Assembly: GCA_002432565.1 (NCBI GenBank)
Contig: DJFP01000134.1
Location: forward strand, 1-7,458
Source: Flavobacteriales bacterium UBA5869
GTDB lineage: Bacteria; Bacteroidota; Bacteroidia; Flavobacteriales_D; Crocinitomicaceae
Length of the DNA stretch: 7,458 bases
Direction of reading: 5' to 3'
The notes under the pieces were generated by a model. That model saw nothing but the letters and a program-made list of their open reading frames with translations. It made no database searches and was not told the origin of the DNA. Below are positions 163-7,458 of the stretch, one piece after another. Made by a program: the position numbers and the translations under genes. Position 1 is the stretch's first letter. Every line of letters starts with the position of its first letter.

Positions 163-242
163 CTTTATTTTGACTGGCATTTTGTTTGCTTCCAACTGAT
201 TGTAAGTTATTTATAATTATTGTTTAACTAAAAAAGTTGGTT

Positions 243-689
243 ATGAATCTGGTAAAAAAGAATGGGAACAGATTTCCCTCATTTTCCCCGATGTTCGACG
301 ATTTTTTTGGACGCGAACTTTTCAACTGGGGAAACAACAATTATTCTTCAACAAGCACAACTATGCCATCGGTGAACATTCGGGAGACGGGTGACAATTA
401 CGAAGTCGAGGTTGCAGCACCGGGTATGGACAAAAAAGATTTCAAGATTACGCTTGACGGCAACCTGCTGACGATTTCTTCCTTCAAGCAGCAAAGCAGT
501 GAGGAAACAGAAGATCGCTACACTCGCAGGGAGTTCAGTTATCAGTCCTTCCAGAGAAGTTTTCAACTTCCAAAAGATGTGGTAGATCAGGATAAAATAA
601 GTGCCCGTTATGAAAATGGCTTACTGAACTTGTCTATCCCTAAAAAGGAAGAAGCCAAAAAAGCTCCCAAACTGATTGAAATCGCGTAA
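243..689 (+). CDS. Small heat-shock protein, Hsp20/alpha-crystallin family
   Basis: This 148-residue protein is a small heat-shock chaperone of the cytoplasm, an ATP-independent holdase that forms oligomers and keeps unfolding proteins soluble. Residues 1-40 form a short variable N-terminal arm rich in Phe, Asn and Ser. The alpha-crystallin domain covers about 42-134 and ends with the family motif A-x-x-x-N-G-L-L (121-128). A C-terminal I-E-I motif (145-147) is the usual I-x-I/V anchor that docks on a neighbouring subunit. The length is normal for bacterial Hsp20. The ATG at 243 is preferred to an in-frame TTG at 237 because it gives the usual Met-Asn/Thr-Leu-Val start; it follows an A-rich leader (taactaaaaaag) instead of a Shine-Dalgarno site, as is common in Bacteroidota. 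The gene stands alone, with the phased palindromes upstream and a terminator just downstream. Confidence 0.95.
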   Translation: MNLVKKNGNRFPSFSPMFDDFFGRELFNWGNNNYSSTSTTMPSVNIRETGDNYEVEVAAPGMDKKDFKITLDGNLLTISSFKQQSSEETEDRYTRREFSYQSFQRSFQLPKDVVDQDKISARYENGLLNLSIPKKEEAKKAPKLIEIA

Positions 690-710
690 TCCGTTGCAAA
701 AAAAAGCACG

Positions 711-742
711 AAGGCTGCCTCCAAACGAGGCGGCCTTTTCTA
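711..742 (+). terminator. Rho-independent terminator of hsp20
   Basis: An 11-bp stem, AAGGCTGCCTC (711-721) with GAGGCGGCCTT (727-737), contains a single G-T wobble and closes a 5-base loop, CAAAC. It is followed by TTCTATTTCTAT. It begins 21 bp after the hsp20 stop, so it isolates hsp20 from the secreted-protein genes downstream. Confidence 0.85.
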
Positions 743-874
743 TTTCTATCAACATGCTAATGGTTATTACCACATCAAAAATTCAACGATAAACAGTTAA
801 AATGTGATTAAATATGATCCGTGCAACTCCGAAATAGGATAAGCGTCTTAAATCTTACACACATATTCAAGACT

Positions 875-1357
875 ATGAAGAAAAGAAAAATCATTGCAGC
901 TGCAATACTCCTTATTGCCAGCTCAGGTGGACTTCATGCACAACAAGCTTTACCGGCCGCGGGGAATGAAGCCTCGGGTGCAGGCGGAACATGCAGTTAC
1001 ACCATCGGACAAATTGATTACACTTCCAATTCCGGACCGAGCGGAGAAGTAAACCAGGGAGTTCAACAGCCTTATGAAATCCTTACCACAGTTGGTCTGG
1101 AAGATCACAACATTACTTTAGAACTTGCTGCTTTTCCAAATCCAACTGCCGGAAGCATGACCATTTCAGTGAGTGATTACGCGAATCAAAAGCTTACTTA
1201 CCAGCTTTTTGATACCCGTGGGAAACTTATCGAAGAAAGGGAAATCAACCAGCATGAAACGGGTGTTTCCATGCACCAATTGGCTCCGGCCGCCTATTTA
1301 TTGAAAGTAACTGATAACGGTCAGTTAGTAAAAGAGTTCCAAATCATTAAAAACTAA
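875..1357 (+). CDS. Small secreted protein with type IX secretion C-terminal sorting domain
   Basis: This 160-residue exported protein has a Sec signal peptide at 1-22 (MKKRK, a hydrophobic core, then a cut after LHA before QQ). Residues 38-68 carry the phrase C-S-Y-T-I-G-Q-I-D-Y and then Q-G-V-Q-Q-P-Y-E-I, which recurs in small Bacteroidota surface proteins. Residues about 82-160 match a type A T9SS sorting domain: F-P-N-P-T at 87-91, alternating beta-strands, G-K-L-I, and a final Y-L-L-K-V-T then K-E-F-Q-I-I-K-N. Such domains direct proteins through the type IX system and are usually cleaved when the cargo is anchored to the cell surface. Almost nothing remains besides the signal, the short GQIDY region and the sorting domain, so no enzymatic role is suggested. 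The ATG at 875 is chosen over an in-frame GTG at 821 because it starts the signal peptide. The next gene begins 5 bp after its stop, so the two are probably co-transcribed. Confidence 0.85.
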   Translation: MKKRKIIAAAILLIASSGGLHAQQALPAAGNEASGAGGTCSYTIGQIDYTSNSGPSGEVNQGVQQPYEILTTVGLEDHNITLELAAFPNPTAGSMTISVSDYANQKLTYQLFDTRGKLIEEREINQHETGVSMHQLAPAAYLLKVTDNGQLVKEFQIIKN

Positions 1358-1362
1358 ACACC

Positions 1363-2403
1363 ATGAATAAACGCATATTAAATACCGCAATCTTATTATT
1401 ACTTGCCTTTAATCTCTTTTCGCAGGCACCACAAAAAATGAGCTACCAGGCTGTCATTCGCAATGCATCCAACACACTGGTAACCAACCAGAATATCGGC
1501 ATGCGTGTCAGCATTTTACAGGGAAGTCCGGGTGGAACCGTGACTTACCAGGAAACACAAACCCCTACTTCAAATATCAATGGCTTAGTGAGCATTGAGA
1601 TTGGATCGGGAACGGTTGTTTCCGGTACTTTTTCGGGAATCGACTGGTCAGCAGGACCTTACTTTGTAAAAACCGAAACAGATCCTGCAGGCGGAACAAA
1701 TTATACAATTACAGGAACTACCCAGTTATTAAGCGTTCCTTACGCACTTCACGCAAACAGTGCCAACGAAAATGATCCGGTCTTCGGCGCTTCCGTTGCA
1801 TCCGGAATAACAGCTATAGATACTGCAAACTGGAACGATCACACTGATTCCACAGACATTGCAGGCATGGGATATGTTGCCGGTCTGGTGAAATACGAAG
1901 TAGGAGATTTTGCACAAGGTGGCGTAGTATGTTACGTAGACGAAAGCGGACAGCACGGACTGGTAGTTGCCAAAAACGACATACCTACCGTGAGATGGTT
2001 TGCCGGTACTTACGGTAAAACACGTGCTGACGGAAATGGTATATACGCAGGTACTGCTAATACAACCATTATTATTCCGGCACAAATCTCCATCGGTGAT
2101 GACGGCAACCCTTATGCTGCTGCAGCTTGTAATGAACTGCAGATCACTGAAGGAACTGTTACTTATTCCGATTGGTATCTTCCAACAAAGGCAGAGTTAG
2201 AGCTTATCGGTGCCAACTACACGATTATTGATGCAACTGCAACAGCGAATGGTGGAACCAACCTGCTTACATCTCCTTACTGGAGTTCCAATGAGGCAAA
2301 CAATACAGATGCAAATGCTGTGGTGATCACTCCGGGAGGAACATCTGTTATGGCCATTAACAAAGCTGCGACTTTTGAAATACGAGCGGTTCGTAGATTC
2401 TAG
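1363..2403 (+). CDS. Exported protein with C-terminal DUF1566-like (Lcl-type) domain
   Basis: This is a 346-residue secreted or surface protein. A signal peptide covers 1-20, with cleavage near F-S/Q-A. Residues about 23-131 form an N-terminal beta-rich domain that begins P-Q-K-M-S-Y-Q-A-V-I-R-N and ends L-L-S-V-P-Y-A-L-H-A; this is a frequent opening of Bacteroidota exported proteins, often ahead of tail-fibre-like or collagen-like repeats. A short linker (137-171) with D-P-V-F-G-A-S-V-A-S-G-I-T looks like one leftover copy of such a repeat. The C-terminal part (about 182-346) is DUF1566-like: G-G-V-V-C-Y-V-D (186-193), D-W-Y-L-P-T-K-A-E-L (270-279), Y-W-S-S-N-E (306-311) and a final R-A-V-R-R-F, a C-type-lectin-like pattern. 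It lacks its own type IX sorting domain, while the gene 5 bp upstream is almost nothing but one. Carbohydrate or surface binding is inference; no catalytic residues are recognised. Confidence 0.85.
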   Translation: MNKRILNTAILLLLAFNLFSQAPQKMSYQAVIRNASNTLVTNQNIGMRVSILQGSPGGTVTYQETQTPTSNINGLVSIEIGSGTVVSGTFSGIDWSAGPYFVKTETDPAGGTNYTITGTTQLLSVPYALHANSANENDPVFGASVASGITAIDTANWNDHTDSTDIAGMGYVAGLVKYEVGDFAQGGVVCYVDESGQHGLVVAKNDIPTVRWFAGTYGKTRADGNGIYAGTANTTIIIPAQISIGDDGNPYAAAACNELQITEGTVTYSDWYLPTKAELELIGANYTIIDATATANGGTNLLTSPYWSSNEANNTDANAVVITPGGTSVMAINKAATFEIRAVRRF

Positions 2404-2426
2404 TTCAAGTTCGATCAACCGCTCTG

Positions 2427-2466
2427 AAGGCCATGGAATTCGTTTCATGGCCTTTGTTTTGTTTTT
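2427..2466 (+). terminator. Rho-independent terminator with UUCG loop
   Basis: A 12-bp stem, AAGGCCATGGAA (2427-2438) with TTTCATGGCCTT (2443-2454), has one G-T wobble and a TTCG tetraloop, and is followed by TGTTTTGTTTTT. It lies 23 bp after the stop of the DUF1566 gene. The left flank has no A-run, so it should act on the plus strand only and not serve the mla operon that converges on it. Confidence 0.9.
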
Positions 2467-2641
2467 ACCCTGCACTTCCGCGAAAGTGGAAATCTGAATG
2501 AACCCATCCGAAGACTGCATGGATGAAGACTTTCAGCTAAAAGAAAATAGTGTTTGTACTTTTCATCCGAATAAAAAACGAACGTACTTTCTGCTGTGTT
2601 TTTGACATAACATTTGGTGGAGATATGGTAAGACCGGCGGA

Positions 2642-3592
2642 TTAGCGCTTTTCTTTTTTCTTTGCTTTAAAGGGCCACCGGTGTTTTAAATTGCTCATAC
2701 TTTCATCGAAATCATCTGCTCCATTTTCGAAATGGGTCAGGATGGAATCAAATTTCTTCAGATATTCCGGATCTGTGAACAACACTCTAACGATTCCATT
2801 GCCATTTTTCAAGTCATCGGACAAGGATTGAAGATTTCCTGAAACGATCGCCAGACTGTCTGTCAGTGAACGGATATTGACAACTGTGCGACTTACATTA
2901 CTTCTCAAAACCGTATCCCCCAGTATCAGACCTGCAGTTCCTTTTCCTTCACGAAGATTCCGGGCTACTGCACGCAGGTCTCCCGTAAGCACTGCCGTGT
3001 TTTCCCCTACATACCTAAAATGGGTGATCGCTGATTGTACATCAGCTGATACTCCAGGGTCGAGCAACAGGTTCAGTAATGACCTGTCACTATTCAGTTT
3101 GCCTGAAATAGCGCGCAAGTCTGCCGATATCACGTTTAAATTTTGGTTGGTTTTATTCAATGTTTGCAGAGTTACATCCATTTCTACCAACCTGTATGTA
3201 AGCAATTTATCTCCTTCTTTTATTTCCTGAGTTGTACTGTGTGAAGCATTGATATTAACAATTCTATTCCCCATTAATCCATCCGTTCCAATAACTGCCA
3301 CGGCATCTTTCCGGATAAACCGGCAAGCATCCCTGTCAATCGACATAGTAACCATTACGGAAGAATCACTAACGATTTCGACCTCATCGACCGTTCCAAC
3401 GTCTATTCCTGCATAGCGTACACTGTTTCCACTTCTGAGTCCGTTAACATTATAAAATTCTGCCCTGATATGGATCGTATCTCCGAACAAACGCTGTTTG
3501 CTCCCGACATAGTAAAGTGCAGCAATAATTCCCAGAGTCCCTATTAATACAATAAGTCCTAAGCGGATATTTCTGTTGGTTTCTTTTTTCAT
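2642..3592 (-). CDS. mlaD: MCE-family substrate-binding protein of phospholipid ABC transporter (MlaD-like)
   Basis: This 316-residue inner-membrane-anchored periplasmic protein is the lipid-binding MCE subunit of an Mla-type transporter. One N-terminal membrane anchor lies at about 11-29 after a basic start (MKKETNRNIR). A single MCE domain covers about 38-117, including G-L-R-S-G-N-x-V-R-Y-A-G-I-x-V-G (51-66) and the D-G-L-M-G-N-R-I-V turn (104-112). The rest is a long helical region, the part that builds the hydrophobic tunnel in hexameric MCE proteins. Three degenerate repeats follow a G/S-x-h-h-x-h-h-h-x-D pattern near 166-180, 216-227 and 263-275, resembling the G-x-G-T-L-G-x-L-L repeats of Bacteroidota MlaD homologues. 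The tail is strongly basic (KAKKKEKR). It is about twice as long as E. coli MlaD. Its start overlaps the mlaF stop by 4 bp (ATGA). The family call is secure; transport direction cannot be read here. Confidence 0.93.
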   Translation of the reverse strand: MKKETNRNIRLGLIVLIGTLGIIAALYYVGSKQRLFGDTIHIRAEFYNVNGLRSGNSVRYAGIDVGTVDEVEIVSDSSVMVTMSIDRDACRFIRKDAVAVIGTDGLMGNRIVNINASHSTTQEIKEGDKLLTYRLVEMDVTLQTLNKTNQNLNVISADLRAISGKLNSDRSLLNLLLDPGVSADVQSAITHFRYVGENTAVLTGDLRAVARNLREGKGTAGLILGDTVLRSNVSRTVVNIRSLTDSLAIVSGNLQSLSDDLKNGNGIVRVLFTDPEYLKKFDSILTHFENGADDFDESMSNLKHRWPFKAKKKEKR

Positions 3593-4359
3593 GATTCAAA
3601 AAATTTTTTGACGGCTTCATTTTCGGACGCCCTGAGCTGCTCATAAGTACCTTCCTGGTAGCATTTTCCATCTATCAGCATCACAATTTTTTCCGCAACT
3701 TTCTTTACGCAATGCATGTCGTGTGATATGATAATCGACGAGGTGTGATATTTTTTTCCAAGTTCGATCATTAGATCACTGATTTCTCCGGCAGTAATCG
3801 GATCAAGACCGGTAGTGGGTTCATCATACAGAATTATTTCCGGCTTAAGAATCAAGGTTCTCGCTAACGCGATTCGTTTGCGCATTCCACCGGAAAGTTC
3901 CGATGGCATCATGTTGATAGTGTGAGGGAGTCCCACATTGGTTAATGCTTCTTCAACAAGCCGGGCCACTTCCTCTTCCGACATTTCCCTCCGATGCCTG
4001 CGTAATGGAAACTCCAGGTTTTCCCTGACAGTCATCGAATCATAAAGCGCATTGCTTTGAAAAAGGAATCCCACACGGGAGCGTATTTGGTCCAGTTCGC
4101 GAAGACCGATGCCAGACATATCCTGCTCCAATACACGGATAATTCCGGAATCGGGTTTTATCAAACCGATGATGCATTTGATCAATACCGATTTCCCGGA
4201 ACCGGATCTTCCCAATATAACAATATTCTCACCTTTGTTTAATCTCAGGTTGAAATTGCGAAGCACCTTATTTTCCCCAAATGATTTACAGAGGTTTTCC
4301 AGGTAAATGACGGTCCCCGATGTTTCGGTCTCAGTTCCATATCCGGTTTTCAGACTCAT
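3589..4359 (-). CDS. mlaF: ABC transporter ATP-binding protein, Mla phospholipid system
   Basis: This 256-residue cytoplasmic ATPase powers the MlaE permease. All nucleotide-binding motifs are present: Walker A G-R-S-G-S-G-K-S (50-57), Q-loop Gln 101, signature L-S-G-G-M (155-159), Walker B I-I-L-Y-D-E (175-180) with catalytic Glu 180, D-loop G-L-D (184-186) and switch His 213. L-S-G-G-M in place of L-S-G-G-Q is characteristic of the MlaF/Ttg2A group and separates it from most other ABC ATPases. Residues 1-16 are an extra polar N-terminus before the first beta-strand. Both junctions are 4-bp ATGA overlaps, with mlaE upstream and mlaD downstream, which indicates translational coupling and fixed stoichiometry. 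Confidence 0.95.
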   Translation of the reverse strand: MSLKTGYGTETETSGTVIYLENLCKSFGENKVLRNFNLRLNKGENIVILGRSGSGKSVLIKCIIGLIKPDSGIIRVLEQDMSGIGLRELDQIRSRVGFLFQSNALYDSMTVRENLEFPLRRHRREMSEEEVARLVEEALTNVGLPHTINMMPSELSGGMRKRIALARTLILKPEIILYDEPTTGLDPITAGEISDLMIELGKKYHTSSIIISHDMHCVKKVAEKIVMLIDGKCYQEGTYEQLRASENEAVKKFFES

Positions 4360-5120
4360 ATCAGTTGTAATAAATCAGTTATCTGAACAGCTACCAGGTC
4401 AAGCACAAATACCATCAGGGAGGAAACAACAACTGCTGCATTTGCAGACCTTCCCACACCTTCCGTACCATGTTGTGTTGTGTATCCCTTATAGCAGCTG
4501 ATAATTCCAATTGCAAAACCAAAAAAGAACGTTTTGGAAATTGACGGGATAATATCTCCGAAAGAAAGGGACTCCATCACCTGAGTCCAATAAAGATCCC
4601 AGCTGATCGCACCGCGCAGGTTTACACCGAGATAACCTCCGTAGAGTGAAATCGCATCCGCAAAAACAACGAGCAATGGAACCATGAGTGTAACCGCTGT
4701 TACCCTGGTTACCACGAGGTACTTAAACGGATTGGTCCCGGAAACTTCCATCGCATCAATCTGTTCCGTTACTTTCATGGAACCTAATTCTGCACCGATA
4801 CCGGAACCGATCTTTCCTGCACAGATTAATGCCGTAATAACCGGAACAATTTCCCTTACAAGAGAAACAGAGATCATTCCTGGCAACCAGGCTTCAGCTC
4901 CGAATTTTATCAATGTGGGACGCGACTGTATCGTAATAACCAAACCTATAATAAAGCCGGTTATTGCTACCAGTCCCAGTGATTTGTAACCCAGAAAAAA
5001 ACATTGCCGAAGCATTTCCCTGAACTCGTATCCTTTTCTGAAAAACTCTCTGAAAAAACGGATAAAAAAACGGGCTATTTCACCTATTTCGATTACGCTA
5101 TTTTTAATATTCTCCCACAT
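4356..5120 (-). CDS. mlaE: ABC transporter permease, MlaE family
   Basis: This 254-residue integral inner-membrane permease is the dimeric core of the MlaFE(D) lipid transporter. An amphipathic N-terminal helix (about 1-42, rich in Phe and Arg) is followed by membrane segments near 46-66, 88-108, 143-167, 193-214 and 229-250. The family hallmarks are visible: the conserved stretch G-S-G-I-G-A-E-L-G-S-M (105-115), the coupling-helix region V-T-E-Q-I-D-A-M (117-124) that contacts the ATPase, and Y-K-G-Y then G-x-E-G-V-G-R-S-x-N-x-A-V (210-230) near the C-terminus. The length fits the family. The mlaF start overlaps its stop, and the preceding small gene ends 5 bp before its ATG. No STAS protein (MlaB) or periplasmic shuttle (MlaC) gene is in the operon, as is common in Bacteroidota. 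Confidence 0.95.
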   Translation of the reverse strand: MWENIKNSVIEIGEIARFFIRFFREFFRKGYEFREMLRQCFFLGYKSLGLVAITGFIIGLVITIQSRPTLIKFGAEAWLPGMISVSLVREIVPVITALICAGKIGSGIGAELGSMKVTEQIDAMEVSGTNPFKYLVVTRVTAVTLMVPLLVVFADAISLYGGYLGVNLRGAISWDLYWTQVMESLSFGDIIPSISKTFFFGFAIGIISCYKGYTTQHGTEGVGRSANAAVVVSSLMVFVLDLVAVQITDLLQLI

Positions 5121-5125
5121 CGCGA

Positions 5126-5491
5126 CTAAACTGAAAGATTGTTCAGCCGGTTAATTTTTTCGAGTGTCATATCGCCTGAGTCAATTATCTGCCAGGACTC
5201 TTCTGTCCATCTATAAATTTCTGTCTCAAGGCCAAATGTGTTTCTTAAATAATCCTTAAGTTCTGAAGGGGTCATTTCCGGATTTATAATGAGCATTCCG
5301 TTCTTACCTCCCGACCGGCAATCACCAACTGTAAAGCTGCTATTTCGCACCATTTTTTCGGGATGTGGTCCACCTTCTGTATGAGGCTTTGCATAGAATT
5401 CGAGTTTCAAATTCCTGAATTTATTCGTGAATAGCTCCCGGATGGCGAATACCTTCCGATGGTTATTGATTTCAATCTGAATCGCTTCCAT
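5126..5491 (-). CDS. Conserved protein of unknown function, first gene of the mla operon
   Basis: A 121-residue soluble protein with no signal peptide or membrane segment. I recognise its pattern from unnamed Bacteroidota proteins: I-E-I-N-x-H-R-K-V-F-A-I (6-17), L-K-L-E-F-Y-A-K-P-H (28-37), a middle G-D-C-R-S (56-60), M-L-I-I-N-P-E-M-T (66-74) and W-T-E-E-S-W (95-100). I know no function for it. It is the promoter-proximal gene, 5 bp ahead of mlaE, so it is very likely expressed with the lipid transporter; a cytosolic accessory role is inference only. Start: an in-frame ATG at 5554 would add 21 residues. I prefer 5491 because the conserved part begins only a few residues later and the extension has no better leader, but the longer form (5126-5554) cannot be excluded. 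Confidence 0.75.
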   Translation of the reverse strand: MEAIQIEINNHRKVFAIRELFTNKFRNLKLEFYAKPHTEGGPHPEKMVRNSSFTVGDCRSGGKNGMLIINPEMTPSELKDYLRNTFGLETEIYRWTEESWQIIDSGDMTLEKINRLNNLSV

Positions 5492-5591
5492 GACAAACCG
5501 TTTAAAAGTTAATTCCACTAATGTCTTCCATTCTACTTCCGGGAACAATGACATTCGTCAGTGCCCGAGTTGACTTTTCCCCTTCAGGTTC

Positions 5592-5629
5592 AGGCTGTTT
5601 TTAATCCGCATCATCACTGCAAACAGCCT
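5592..5629. promoter_or_regulatory. 9-bp perfect inverted repeat in the divergent intergenic region
   Basis: AGGCTGTTT (5592-5600) and AAACAGCCT (5621-5629) are exact reverse complements separated by 20 bp. They lie between the divergent mla operon and the DUF3788 gene. There is no U-run on either side, so it is not a standard terminator. A tandem TTCAGG TTCAGG (5584-5594) abuts the left arm. It could be an operator for a dimeric regulator or a leader hairpin; the sequence does not decide. Confidence 0.35.
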
Positions 5630-5660
5630 CATGCATCCTATAATTCACTAATTTCGCCTC

Positions 5661-6080
5661 ATGGACACAAGTATTTTTTCCAATAAAGAACTAATTCCGG
5701 GAGACCAGGACCTTTCCGAGAAATTGGAAAAAACCTGCGATCTGTGGAATTCCATCCGGGATTATGTTCAGAAAAAGGCTCCTGACTCCGTGGAAGAATG
5801 GAAATATTCCGGAAAAAAATTTGGATGGAGCTTTCGGATCAATGACAAAAAGAGGGTCATTGTTTACCTGCTTCCACGGGAAGCTTATTTCAAAGCCGCA
5901 TTTGTATTCGGTCAAAAAGCTACCGACGCAATCGTAAACAGCACCATTTCCGATACGATCAAAAAAGAACTCCTATCGGCTAAAGTGTATGCAGAAGGGC
6001 GGGGAATCCGGATTGATGTCCGTGATCCCGAAGTACTGGAAGATATCAGGCGTTTGATCGAGGTCAAGTTGGCTTACTAA
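5661..6080 (+). CDS. DUF3788 family protein
   Basis: A 139-residue soluble cytoplasmic protein that matches the DUF3788 family, whose biochemical role is unknown to me. Family-like features are E-E-W-K-Y-S-G-K-K-F-G-W-S-F-R (45-59), the strand Y-L-L-P-R-E-A-Y-F-K-A-A-F-V-F-G (69-84) and A-x-V-Y-A-E-G-R-G-I-R-I-D-V (107-120). The fold resembles that of small YdhG/DUF1801-like proteins, but that comparison is a recollection. The length is typical. The ATG at 5661 is the first in frame. It is transcribed away from the mla operon and ends 3 bp before the stop of the opposing CBS gene, so its mRNA must extend antisense into that gene unless termination is immediate. Confidence 0.82.
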   Translation: MDTSIFSNKELIPGDQDLSEKLEKTCDLWNSIRDYVQKKAPDSVEEWKYSGKKFGWSFRINDKKRVIVYLLPREAYFKAAFVFGQKATDAIVNSTISDTIKKELLSAKVYAEGRGIRIDVRDPEVLEDIRRLIEVKLAY

Positions 6081-6083
6081 TAT

Positions 6084-6494
6084 TCAATCACCCTGTTTGA
6101 GAAAGTAGCGGATTAAATCCGTTGCCGTTACAATTCCACTTACCTGATCACCATCCAGGACAATTACAGAACTGAACTCTCCTTTTGCAAGCAATGCCCC
6201 AGCCTCCGCAATTGAAGTGTCTTTACTGACCGTAACCGGATTAGGAGACATAATGTCTTCCACTTTTTTCAAAGAATAAACAGGTTCGTTATCATCAAGA
6301 GTTGCCTCTCCAATAGCGTGCATGTAATCGACAAGGCTTACCATTCCTACCAGCTGATCATTTTCTGTAACCGGAAAATGACGGTGAAAACGCTGCCTTT
6401 CATAAAGGTGTTTGATAACCAATATTTTATCCTGGGGACCAACACATTCAACAGGGGTGGTCATAATTGCTGATATGGGTAATTTCAAATCCAT
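6084..6494 (-). CDS. Two-CBS-domain protein
   Basis: A 136-residue protein made almost entirely of a tandem CBS pair (Bateman module): CBS1 at about 7-62 and CBS2 at about 78-135. Each begins with the usual I-M-T/S-x-x-P/x-V (I-M-T-T-P-V at 10-15, I-M-S-P-N-P-V at 81-87), and each ends with a G-h-V-S/T-x-x-D strand-turn (G-M-V-S-L-V-D 50-56; G-I-V-T-A-T-D 120-126) that carries the Asp often involved in binding adenosine ribose. CBS1 has an unusually His/Arg-rich loop (R-Q-R-F-H-R-H-F, 33-40). Such stand-alone pairs are thought to sense AMP, ATP, SAM or similar ligands and act on partner proteins; no partner is encoded beside it. The start is the only sensible ATG, after an AT-rich leader. Confidence 0.9.
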   Translation of the reverse strand: MDLKLPISAIMTTPVECVGPQDKILVIKHLYERQRFHRHFPVTENDQLVGMVSLVDYMHAIGEATLDDNEPVYSLKKVEDIMSPNPVTVSKDTSIAEAGALLAKGEFSSVIVLDGDQVSGIVTATDLIRYFLKQGD

Positions 6495-6754: not shown

Positions 6755-6872
6755 GAAAACTGATTCCACGTACGCTGTCTTTTCTTTCTTGCGTGAATAC
6801 TCATTGTAGATCTGAAATGCCTGGTGATAAGCCGGAATAAACGTGCTTTTCGGGAGTATTGGTTTTTATAGA
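6731..6872 (-). pseudogene. Possible decayed GIY-YIG nuclease remnant
   Basis: On the minus strand one frame reads E-K-H-V-Y-S-G-L-S-P-G-I-S-D-L-Q and stops; the frame shifted by one then reads I-Y-N-E-Y-S-R-K-K-E-K-T-A-Y-V-E-S-V-F-S-I-R-K. Joined, these give Y-x-G-x-S, L-Q, Y-S/T-R-K and Y-x-E in the same order as the intact GIY-YIG protein 400 bp away (Y-R-G-F-S, L-Q-H-N, Y-T-R-K, Y-L-E). It also follows the same two hairpins, as the intact gene does. No start codon, GIY motif or C-terminal half is present, and at least one frameshift is needed. The similarity is faint and short, so this is a suggestion only. Confidence 0.25.
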
Positions 6873-6876
6873 AGGT

Positions 6877-6908
6877 AAGTTCTCAGACATTGATACATCT
6901 TAGGACTT
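6877..6908 (-). repeat. Hairpin 2, copy A (degenerate copy of the tRNA-Asp terminator)
   Basis: AAGTTCTCAGA (6877-6887) faces TCTTAGGACTT (6898-6908) around the loop CATTGATACA. There is one mismatch and one wobble. The 10-base loop is identical to the loop of the terminator at 7318-7351, while most stem bases differ. The minus-strand 3' side lacks a good U-run, so it has probably lost terminator activity. Confidence 0.65.
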
Positions 6909-6914
6909 TCTAAT

Positions 6915-6932
6915 CTCAACAGCCATATTGAA
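6915..6932 (-). repeat. Hairpin 1, copy A (loop TATGGCTG on minus strand)
   Basis: Read on the minus strand, TTCAA and TTGAG flank the 8-base loop TATGGCTG, forming four Watson-Crick pairs and one G-U pair. The same loop appears in copy B (7355-7374) with a different but still paired stem. It sits 32 bases from the hairpin 2 loop, against 31 in copy B. Confidence 0.5.
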
Positions 6933-6954
6933 CTTCTCTTTTTGCTTTTAATCC

Positions 6955-6965
6955 CGGCTGAGCCG
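6955..6965. repeat. Short palindrome inserted next to the tRNA copy A 3' end
   Basis: CGGCTGAGCCG is a 5-bp perfect inverted repeat around one base, 4 bp from the 3' end of the damaged tRNA copy. Copy B has no counterpart: there the tRNA is followed almost at once by ACGTTAAAAG. It accounts for most of the extra 18 bases between tRNA and hairpin 1 in copy A. Confidence 0.45.
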
Positions 6966-6968
6966 TGA

Positions 6969-7035
6969 CGGTCTGGACGGGACTCGAACCCGTCCCCAAG
7001 GCACTTGGGGATGACAGGCATGTATTCTAACCAAC
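6969..7035 (-). pseudogene. 5'-truncated, rearranged tRNA-Asp copy
   Basis: On the minus strand this copy matches the tRNA-Asp at 7392-7458 exactly from the D-loop (GTTGGTTAGAATACATGCCT) to the anticodon loop (GTCA), and again through the T-loop and the 3' acceptor strand CCAGACC plus discriminator G. Between them, 12 bases that hold the 3' anticodon stem and variable loop are replaced by 19 bases forming a perfect 8-bp hairpin, TCCCCAAG-gca-CTTGGGGA (6993-7011). The 5' acceptor strand and first part of the D-arm are missing; GIY-YIG coding sequence takes their place. Neither acceptor stem nor anticodon stem can form, so it cannot act as a normal tRNA-Asp. The T-stem is intact and even improved (ACGGG with CCCGT). 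Confidence 0.85.
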
Positions 7036-7293
7036 AAGTATATTCTTCTGTGATTTGATTAATTCTCCAATTTGCATTTTAGAGTATTTCTTCAATCCCT
7101 TTTCACGAATTAAAGCTTCCTTTTTCGTTTGAAAACGTTCAAGGTAGATCAATGTCCAATCGCAATGCTTACGCGTATAGTGGCTTTCCTTATTATTATG
7201 TTGCAGTAATCGCTTCTCCGGATTTTCAGAGAAGCCTCTGTAATAACAGCCTCCTGATTGGCTATAGATGATGTAGACGTAGTAAGTTCCCAT
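7027..7293 (-). CDS. Solitary GIY-YIG nuclease-family protein
   Basis: An 88-residue protein consisting of one GIY-YIG domain, the endonuclease fold also found in UvrC and group I intron homing enzymes. The core motifs are V-Y-I (6-8, the GIY equivalent), Y-R-G (18-20, the YIG equivalent), the catalytic Arg 28 in E-K-R-L-L-Q-H-N, and Glu 64 in R-E-K-G-L-K-K, the metal-binding position. All key residues are present, so it may be active. No DNA-binding domain is attached. The last codons (GTT GGT TAG) lie inside the D-loop sequence of the damaged tRNA-Asp copy: the gene runs directly into the tRNA and takes its stop from it. Upstream, its ATG is 25 bp past the tRNA-Asp terminator, with no clear promoter between. 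Single-domain relatives next to tRNA genes are frequent in Bacteroidota; their role is unknown to me. Confidence 0.9.
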   Translation of the reverse strand: MGTYYVYIIYSQSGGCYYRGFSENPEKRLLQHNNKESHYTRKHCDWTLIYLERFQTKKEALIREKGLKKYSKMQIGELIKSQKNILVG

Positions 7294-7316
7294 GAAAGTG
7301 GTTTCTCATATAAAGC

Positions 7317-7352
7317 AAAAACCCTAGAGCATTGATACACTCTAGGGTTTTC
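7317..7352 (-). terminator. Terminator of tRNA-Asp (hairpin 2, copy B)
   Basis: A 12-bp perfect stem, AAAACCCTAGAG (7318-7329) with CTCTAGGGTTTT (7340-7351), closes the loop CATTGATACA. Both sides carry A/T runs, so it could stop transcription in either direction; on the minus strand it ends TAGGGTTTTTGC. It lies 40 bp after the tRNA-Asp 3' end and just before the GIY-YIG gene, so that gene depends on read-through or on a promoter of its own. Confidence 0.85.
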
Positions 7353-7354
7353 TA

Positions 7355-7374
7355 AGCTTACAGCCATATAAGCT
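7355..7374 (-). repeat. Hairpin 1, copy B (loop TATGGCTG on minus strand)
   Basis: AGCTTA and TAAGCT form a 6-bp perfect stem around the 8-base loop CAGCCATA (TATGGCTG on the minus strand). It lies between the tRNA-Asp 3' end and its terminator and is repeated at 6915-6932 with a changed stem and unchanged loop. Confidence 0.6.
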
Positions 7375-7391
7375 ATTTTCTTTTAACGTTG

Positions 7392-7458
7392 CGGTCTGGA
7401 CGGGACTCGAACCCGCGACCCCATGCGTGACAGGCATGTATTCTAACCAACTGAACTA
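7392..7458 (-). tRNA. tRNA-Asp (GTC), cut by the window edge
   Basis: On the minus strand the sequence starts at tRNA position 8 (TAGTTCAGTTGG, the D-arm) and runs through anticodon stem-loop CATGC-CTGTCAC-GCATG with anticodon GTC, variable loop, T-arm GCGGG-TTCGAGT-CCCGT, the 3' acceptor strand CCAGACC and discriminator G at 7392. G at that position fits aspartate identity. CCA is not encoded (GCAACG follows), so it must be added by the nucleotidyltransferase. Only the seven bases of the 5' acceptor strand, expected to be GGTCTGG, lie outside the window. Confidence 0.93.

What the first reader, a model, noticed from the sequence alone, without database searches (positions are those of the whole stretch)
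6877..7458. Tandem unit of tRNA-Asp, two hairpins and a GIY-YIG gene, one copy intact and one decayed
On the minus strand the order tRNA-Asp, hairpin 1 (loop TATGGCTG), hairpin 2 (loop TGTATCAATG) occurs twice, with tRNA 3' ends 423 bp apart. The first copy is followed by an intact GIY-YIG gene; the second by a stretch that may be a broken one. The GIY-YIG gene thus sits between a complete tRNA and a 5'-truncated tRNA copy, the arrangement left when an element targets a tRNA gene and restores it. A single-domain nuclease with no transposase or integrase could be a minimal tRNA-associated selfish unit. The order and repeats are seen; mobility is inferred.
Basis: partly seen in the sequence, partly recalled or inferred. 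Interest (0 to 1): 0.7.

Follow-up and report, generated by a model that had tools for sequence, protein, structure and literature searches.

The report
tRNA-docked nuclease-and-hairpin selfish cassette
Beside a tRNA-Asp gene of a Fluviicola relative sits a tiny GIY-YIG nuclease gene followed by a second tRNA-Asp copy in which part of the anticodon arm is replaced by a hairpin, a unit that recurs beside tRNA genes in many Bacteroidota and is likely a minimal selfish element that would spread by docking at tRNA genes while leaving them working.

Summary
The repeated layout is real. On the minus strand: tRNA-Asp (cut only by the contig end), two hairpins, an 88-aa GIY-YIG gene, then a 5'-truncated tRNA-Asp copy and the hairpins again. 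The second copy is not simple decay: its nt 39-50 are replaced by a TCCC...GGGA hairpin. A hairpin at the same tRNA position follows the related gene in 32 of 46 Bacteroidota loci; inner stem pairs vary on both sides, and the tRNA flanks mostly match the local host tRNA. Related genes sit on the same strand beside Asp, Val, Asn, Ala, Arg, Met, Phe, Leu, His and Pro tRNAs, and their tree groups by tRNA isotype more than by host. In 14 genomes of the genus the tRNA-Asp site is occupied in 5, by three nuclease lineages, and empty in 9; two close relatives carry different nucleases there in nearly identical flanks. I read it as a selfish cassette, likely spreading by nuclease-initiated recombination with the tRNA as homology arm. 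Cleavage and movement are inferred. An identical intact tRNA in occupied and empty genomes argues against classical homing on the tRNA body. Closest precedent: phage SegB. Eight full-text searches found no description.

The parts
7391..7458 (-). tRNA-Asp(gtc), nt 8-75; the 5' end is cut off by the contig end
   Evidence: 100% over nt 8-75 to the full gene on C234; Rfam tRNA 49.2 bits
7355..7374 (-). hairpin 1, loop TATGGCTG, first copy (native region behind tRNA-Asp in the genus)
   Evidence: sequence; also at 7 of 9 sites without a nuclease, by eye
7318..7351 (-). hairpin 2, loop TGTATCAATG, first copy, terminator-like
   Evidence: 12-bp perfect arms 7318-7329 and 7340-7351
7027..7293 (-). 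GIY-YIG nuclease gene, 88 codons plus stop; the last codons and stop are read from tRNA D-arm sequence
   Evidence: PF01541 E 2.5e-15; Y7, Y18, R28, H32, E64 among the columns invariant in 18 relatives; single-domain model, pLDDT 94.3; dN 0.061, dS 0.309 against G009
6969..7035 (-). T*: tRNA-Asp copy lacking nt 1-14, with nt 39-50 replaced by a hairpin
   Evidence: nt 15-74 at 81%; same structure in 32 of 46 loci
6993..7011 (-). hairpin TCCCCAAG-TGC-CTTGGGGA inside T*
   Evidence: the only TCCCCAAG...CTTGGGGA among the 36 pattern matches of this genome, going by the listed rows
6952..6968 (-). second, imperfect palindrome directly behind T*
   Evidence: sequence; the same in relative G008
6916..6931 (-). 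hairpin 1, loop TATGGCTG, second copy
   Evidence: sequence
6877..6908 (-). hairpin 2, second copy, imperfect stem
   Evidence: direct repeat 6888-6916 / 7330-7358 at 79%

Best explanation
This is a minimal, likely selfish cassette: a single-domain GIY-YIG nuclease gene lies between a tRNA-Asp gene and a second tRNA-Asp copy (T*) in which nt 39-50 are replaced by a hairpin, and it is predicted to spread by nuclease-initiated homologous recombination at tRNA-Asp genes. Shown: the anatomy, related genes beside ten tRNA isotypes, nuclease lineages that cluster by isotype, sites with and without the cassette, one lineage in place of another in the same flanks, purifying selection on the nuclease, and recurrence of the hairpin at one position of T*. 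Inferred: the nuclease cuts or nicks DNA at a hairpin (in T* or a tRNA arm); the break starts copying into the tRNA gene of a genome without it, with tRNA and terminator as homology arms; the product keeps one complete tRNA upstream, so the host is spared; the nuclease is expressed by read-through from the tRNA promoter. Hairpin type seems to follow the nuclease lineage and the tRNA flanks follow the host, so I take the hairpin to be the nuclease's cognate site or the element's end.
For: Of 101 GIY-YIG matches examined (of 139 found in 48 of 59 genomes), 41 have an intact tRNA on the same strand within 150 bp and 0 on the opposite strand; none of those 41 lies in the 32-row clade of other small GIY-YIG proteins. 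The tree needs 22 label changes against 58.6 in shuffles; among linked rows, 15 changes of isotype against 49 of host genome. Genus sites: 5 occupied, 9 not, three lineages. G000 and G008: 1,493 bp upstream at 96.4% and 217 bp downstream at 90%, but no DNA match inside the nuclease gene beyond about its first 28 bases and 39% protein identity. Hairpin at one position of T* in 32 of 46 loci, with pair types changed on both sides. T* flanks fit the own host's tRNA strictly best in 16 of 24 loci. TC-foot hairpins behind 26 of 58 linked genes against 2 of 32 in the unlinked clade. Fold nearest to UPF0213 and to SLX1, a branched-DNA nuclease.
Against: No movement or cleavage was observed. The intact tRNA-Asp is 100% identical in 12 of 13 complete genus copies, occupied or not, so a nuclease that reads the tRNA body should cut its own host. 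14 of 46 loci gave no T* hairpin in the scan (2 end at the contig edge, 3 more fit by eye). T* flanks tie with another host in 4 of 24 loci and fit another host better in 4. One lineage-A relative sits by tRNA-Ser (L254). Hairpin-bearing tRNA copies also occur beside tRNAs without a nuclease, so the pairing of nuclease and hairpin is not strict; an Arg-linked gene outside the double-hairpin clade has a double hairpin in its upstream tRNA remnant (L002). The tree rests on 97 columns with 34 of 97 inner branches unresolved.
Confidence: 0.55

Rival explanations
1. A classical free-standing homing endonuclease of the SegB kind: the enzyme cuts tRNA genes and repair copies its gene in or amplifies tRNA-nuclease units in tandem; T* is a by-product.
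For: SegB cuts in tRNA genes and makes tandem tRNA-segB units through microhomology of the tRNA 5' end and the segB 3' end (PMC13096335, passages). Here too the nuclease 3' end runs into tRNA sequence and tandem units occur.
Against: The intact tRNA is identical in occupied and unoccupied genomes, so the target would not be protected. The protein has one domain and no separate DNA-binding domain. No phage match. It does not explain the hairpin at one position of T*.
Confidence: 0.22
2. An RNA-level system: the nuclease cleaves or binds tRNA, or the T* RNA serves as its antidote, decoy or guide.
For: T* keeps anticodon and T-arm sequence of the own host; several T* stems hold a G-T pair that would pair as G-U in RNA; isotype-specific lineages.
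Against: One inverted hairpin would give A-C in RNA (L222). T* usually lacks the 5' acceptor strand. The nearest folds are DNA-repair nucleases and UPF0213.
Confidence: 0.1
3. A host gene or passenger of integrase islands that use tRNA sites; T* is an attachment-site remnant.
For: tRNA-Asp of the genus is also followed by a tyrosine integrase gene in G010 (PF00589; similar proteins by eye in G001 and G013).
Against: The unit has no integrase, recurs as a unit of roughly 300-500 bp in tandem, and T* carries both sides of an internal point, not only the tRNA 3' end.
Confidence: 0.07
4. Ordinary tandem duplication of a tRNA gene, with chance neighbours and decay.
For: Partial tRNA copies occur widely, some without a nuclease.
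Against: A nuclease of one sub-family recurs on one strand beside tRNAs in 41 of 101 cases, and the hairpin recurs at one position across a phylum.
Confidence: 0.03

Closest known systems
SegB of phage T6 (GIY-YIG free-standing homing endonuclease; PMC13096335, passages and section 10)
   Same: GIY-YIG gene beside tRNA genes, tandem tRNA-nuclease units, sequence shared between tRNA and the nuclease 3' end
   Different: Phage-borne; reported there without isotype preference; no hairpin-bearing tRNA copy mentioned in what I read; our protein has no phage match at E 1e-5, only weak PHROG endonuclease matches
REP sequences with RAYT (Y1) transposases (recalled)
   Same: Short palindromes with a shared foot; autonomous and possibly non-autonomous copies
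   Different: Nuclease is GIY-YIG; hairpins sit mainly known here in tRNA copies; only 6-41 TCCCSA..TSGGGA matches per genome in 8 genomes
UPF0213 / YhbQ-type small GIY-YIG proteins (structures 1ywl, 1zg2)
   Same: Single GIY-YIG domain, sequence and fold relation
   Different: The related 32-row clade of small GIY-YIG proteins lacks the tRNA link
tRNA-targeting integrative elements that restore the tRNA (recalled)
   Same: The tRNA stays complete and a partial copy lies on the far side
   Different: No integrase in the unit; the partial copy holds both sides of an internal point marked by a hairpin

Membership tests
Free-standing GIY-YIG homing endonuclease | GIY-YIG catalytic domain with its residues | tested here: met
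   PF01541; Y7, Y18, R28, H32, E64 invariant in 18 relatives; that these are the catalytic residues is recalled
Free-standing GIY-YIG homing endonuclease | Sites with and without the gene at one locus | tested here: met
   5 of 14 occupied, 9 of 14 not
Free-standing GIY-YIG homing endonuclease | Target sequence changed or split in the donor allele | tested here: not met
   for the tRNA body: intact tRNA-Asp 100% identical in 12 of 13 complete copies, occupied or not; flanking or structural targets not tested
Free-standing GIY-YIG homing endonuclease | Separate DNA-binding domain (as in I-TevI; recalled) | tested here: not met
   88-aa single-domain model
Free-standing GIY-YIG homing endonuclease | Cuts the empty allele and is copied in | not testable with these tools
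   needs biochemistry and crosses
REP/RAYT | Y1 (HUH) transposase in the unit | tested here: not met
   no ORF of 50 aa or more in 6866-7458 beyond the GIY-YIG gene and two ORFs that overlap tRNA copies or run inside the gene; those two were not searched for domains
REP/RAYT | High-copy dispersed palindromes | tested here: inconclusive
   6-41 matches per genome in 8 genomes against 2-12 for the reversed pattern; other palindromes not counted
tRNA-targeting integrative element | Integrase gene in the unit | tested here: not met
UPF0213-type small GIY-YIG protein | Sequence and fold relation | tested here: met
   1ywl E 7.9e-9; 1zg2 E 3.3e-4 by fold

The most novel reading that the evidence does not exclude
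A categorically new class of mobile element: a single-domain GIY-YIG nuclease paired with a cognate hairpin carried inside a copy of the host's own tRNA. Each nuclease lineage owns a hairpin type, docks at one tRNA isotype, and moves by nicking its own hairpin and recombining through the tRNA: a GIY-YIG counterpart of the REP/RAYT system, with nuclease-free tRNA-hairpin copies as its non-autonomous offspring.
Probability: 0.3. Interest if true: 0.9.

Novelty: new variant of a known kind. Interest (0 to 1): 0.76.

Why it matters
If true, it would be among the smallest autonomous selfish elements (one domain of about 80-100 residues), would explain many of the partial tRNA copies and palindromes beside Bacteroidota tRNA genes, and would give a testable case of a nuclease without a DNA-binding domain living off tRNA genes. 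It also poses a sharp question: how the nuclease spares the intact tRNA that is identical to the unoccupied site.

Tried and rejected
A second, broken GIY-YIG gene behind T*: searched with 101 proteins, best E 0.028. Other RNA genes beside GIY genes without a tRNA hit: 40 loci (three of them, L036, L047 and L048, with tRNA remnants) against Rfam; tmRNA at 3 and tRNA at 2. Palindromes as high-copy REPs: 6-41 TCCCSA..TSGGGA matches per genome in 8 genomes, against 2-12 for the reversed pattern. Phage or plasmid origin: no phage match, 4 weak Sinorhizobium plasmid matches. Literature: 8 searches listed no paper on this arrangement by title or abstract; of one paper (PMC13096335) I saw passages and one section, of the others the listing only; the library holds open-licence PMC papers. 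Curated family name: no NCBIfam match for three proteins.

Rows dropped: 38 of the 139 matches were not fetched (the weaker ones, plus two of UvrC size and one in a 375-aa frame). Of the 78 named loci, 62 were checked for tRNAs and 45, with the window, for T*. The tRNA labels were set by hand, so labelled against unlabelled (41 of 62 against 0 of 32) is partly circular; by clade it is 41 of 69 against 0 of 32. Seven GIY genes outside that clade have no tRNA label. The T* hairpin finder demands pairing, so only the variety of pair types is evidence. The tRNA scan of G002 fetched 30 of its 33 tRNA loci.

Full report
What is in the window. The window is the whole contig C164 of a 316-contig genome. 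Two genomes of the same genus group have contigs with the lengths and matches of records titled Fluviicola sp. (G009: 607,597 bases; G004: 17,535 bases), so I take the source to be a Fluviicola relative. On the minus strand the contig starts inside tRNA-Asp(gtc) (nt 8-75, 100% to a complete copy on contig C234). Two hairpins, an 88-codon GIY-YIG gene (PF01541) and a second tRNA-Asp copy, T*, follow, then the same two hairpins. T* begins at tRNA nt 15, overlapping the nuclease's last codons; the stop codon is read from D-arm sequence. After TGTCA (nt 38) nt 39-50 are replaced by TCCCCAAG-TGC-CTTGGGGA, and nt 51-74 follow. No second GIY-YIG relic was found.

The link to tRNA genes is general. 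The same genome has five GIY-YIG matches; four lie next to tRNAs (Asp, Arg, Asn, Val). Among 59 genomes from genus to order, 48 have matches, 139 in all, of which I examined 101. An intact tRNA lies on the same strand within 150 bp in 41 of 101, on the opposite strand in 0 of 101. Counting remnants, I labelled 62 of 101 as tRNA-linked: Asp, Val, Asn, Ala, Arg, Met, Phe, Leu, His or Pro. A 32-row clade of other small GIY-YIG proteins (SH-aLRT 97) has 0 of 32; seven more rows outside it have no label. The tree has few columns (97) and many unresolved forks, but isotype labels are clustered: 22 changes against 58.6 in shuffles; for linked rows 15 changes of isotype against 49 of host genome.

Occupied and unoccupied sites. 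All 14 genomes of the genus have a tRNA-Asp match; 13 have a complete gene (G004's is missing from its assembly). G000, G004, G008, G009 and G011 carry a cassette there. Nine show no nuclease in the 760 bp behind the tRNA, and 7 of these 9 show the hairpin pair (by eye); G007 has a further partial hairpin copy downstream, perhaps a relic, and G010 a second, nearly complete tRNA-Asp elsewhere. G009 carries two lineages in tandem, G011 one of them, G008 a third. G000 and G008 share 1,493 bp of upstream flank at 96.4% and 217 bp downstream at 90%, yet the nuclease genes have no DNA match beyond about the first 28 bases and 39% protein identity: one cassette in place of another at one site. dN is 0.061 and dS 0.309 between G000 and G009; the G000-G004 pair was saturated in dS.

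T* recurs and is not just decay. A scan of named genomes returned 78 loci. Of 45 Bacteroidota loci among them, 27 have tRNA-Asp upstream on the same strand within 700 bp and one has tRNA-Ser; 9 of the other 17 hold less than 700 bp upstream. Of 17 further loci checked, mostly from other phyla, one (a Kuenenia bin) has tRNA-Asp upstream and one (Omnitrophota) a tRNA-Glu downstream. A hairpin at the same tRNA position was found in 32 of 46 loci (the 45 and the window). Of the 14 misses, two end at the contig edge and three (L220, L222, L235) show it by eye with a mismatch or an inverted hairpin. The foot TC...GA is invariant in the 32, pairs 3 and 4 nearly so, and pairs 5-8 show pair types changed on both sides; pairing itself was a condition of the search. 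T* flanks match the own host better than any differing host in 16 of 24 loci, tie in 4 and are lower in 4. In the Val lineage one hairpin, TCCCGATGCATAGCAATCGGGA, sits in the anticodon arm of T* of three hosts whose tRNAs differ, with a longer variant in a fourth. Hairpins with a TC foot lie behind 26 of 58 linked genes, 3 of 7 unlabelled ones and 2 of 32 in the unlinked clade. In one nuclease clade, 8 of 11 loci, beside Asp, Val, His and Ala tRNAs or none, carry a double hairpin; I saw none behind 13 other genes folded for comparison (by eye), although one of these 13 (L002) has one upstream. So hairpin type seems to follow the nuclease, and flanks follow the host.

How it may work. The protein is one GIY-YIG domain (pLDDT 94.3), nearest to UPF0213 and to SLX1, which cuts branched DNA. 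I infer a structure-reading nuclease that nicks a hairpin in T* or in a tRNA arm and so starts recombination in which tRNA and terminator serve as homology arms. That would explain isotype-specific lineages without sequence-specific reading, tandem units and a working tRNA at every stage. Against classical homing stands the identity of the intact tRNA in occupied and unoccupied genomes. Hairpin-bearing tRNA copies also occur beside tRNAs without a nuclease. In the complete genome G002, 6 of 33 TCCC palindromes (one of them in its Val cassette) lie within 350 bp of a tRNA, against 0.15 expected by random placement; they may be non-autonomous or orphaned copies.

What is known. SegB of phage T6 is the nearest precedent: a GIY-YIG enzyme that cuts in tRNA genes and makes tandem tRNA-segB units (PMC13096335; passages, section 10). 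It is phage-borne and reported without isotype preference. Eight full-text searches listed no account of the bacterial cassette. I therefore rate it a new variant of a known kind, with an open case for a new class.

Noticed in passing
L023 (G000 C11, tRNA-Met), L029 (C166, tRNA-Leu), L159 (G002, tRNA-Leu): tRNAs without a nuclease are flanked by partial tRNA copies whose D loop or T loop holds a TCCCGA...TCGGGA palindrome in place of two or three bases.
   Followed up: partly
L170, L171 (G308, G304): Tandem arrays of T*-hairpin-terminator units without a nuclease between them; hairpin loops differ and some are inverted (TGC and GCA).
   Followed up: no
L113, L121, L123: A 78-aa GIY-YIG family outside the tRNA-linked clades lies a few hundred bases from the tmRNA gene in three genomes.
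   Followed up: no
L141, L142, L145 (G010, G001, G013): The same tRNA-Asp is followed by a tyrosine integrase gene in G010 (PF00589) and by similar proteins in G001 and G013 (by eye).
   Followed up: partly
window 7318-7374 and L140-L150: The region behind tRNA-Asp has two hairpins with constant loops (TATGGCTG, GTATCAAT) and changing stems across the genus, also without a nuclease; perhaps an RNA motif.
   Followed up: no
L048, L003, L071: The C-terminus of some GIY-YIG proteins is read from tRNA D-arm sequence (for example ...ISSAG...LAQLVRVP).
   Followed up: no
L264: A Kuenenia bin (title) carries a related GIY-YIG gene 97 bp behind tRNA-Asp; transfer or binning error.
   Followed up: no
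window 237-6494: The rest of the contig looks ordinary: HSP20, a secretion-tail protein, an Lcl_C-like protein, an MlaD/ABC/MlaE cluster, DUF3788, a CBS-domain protein.
   Followed up: yes
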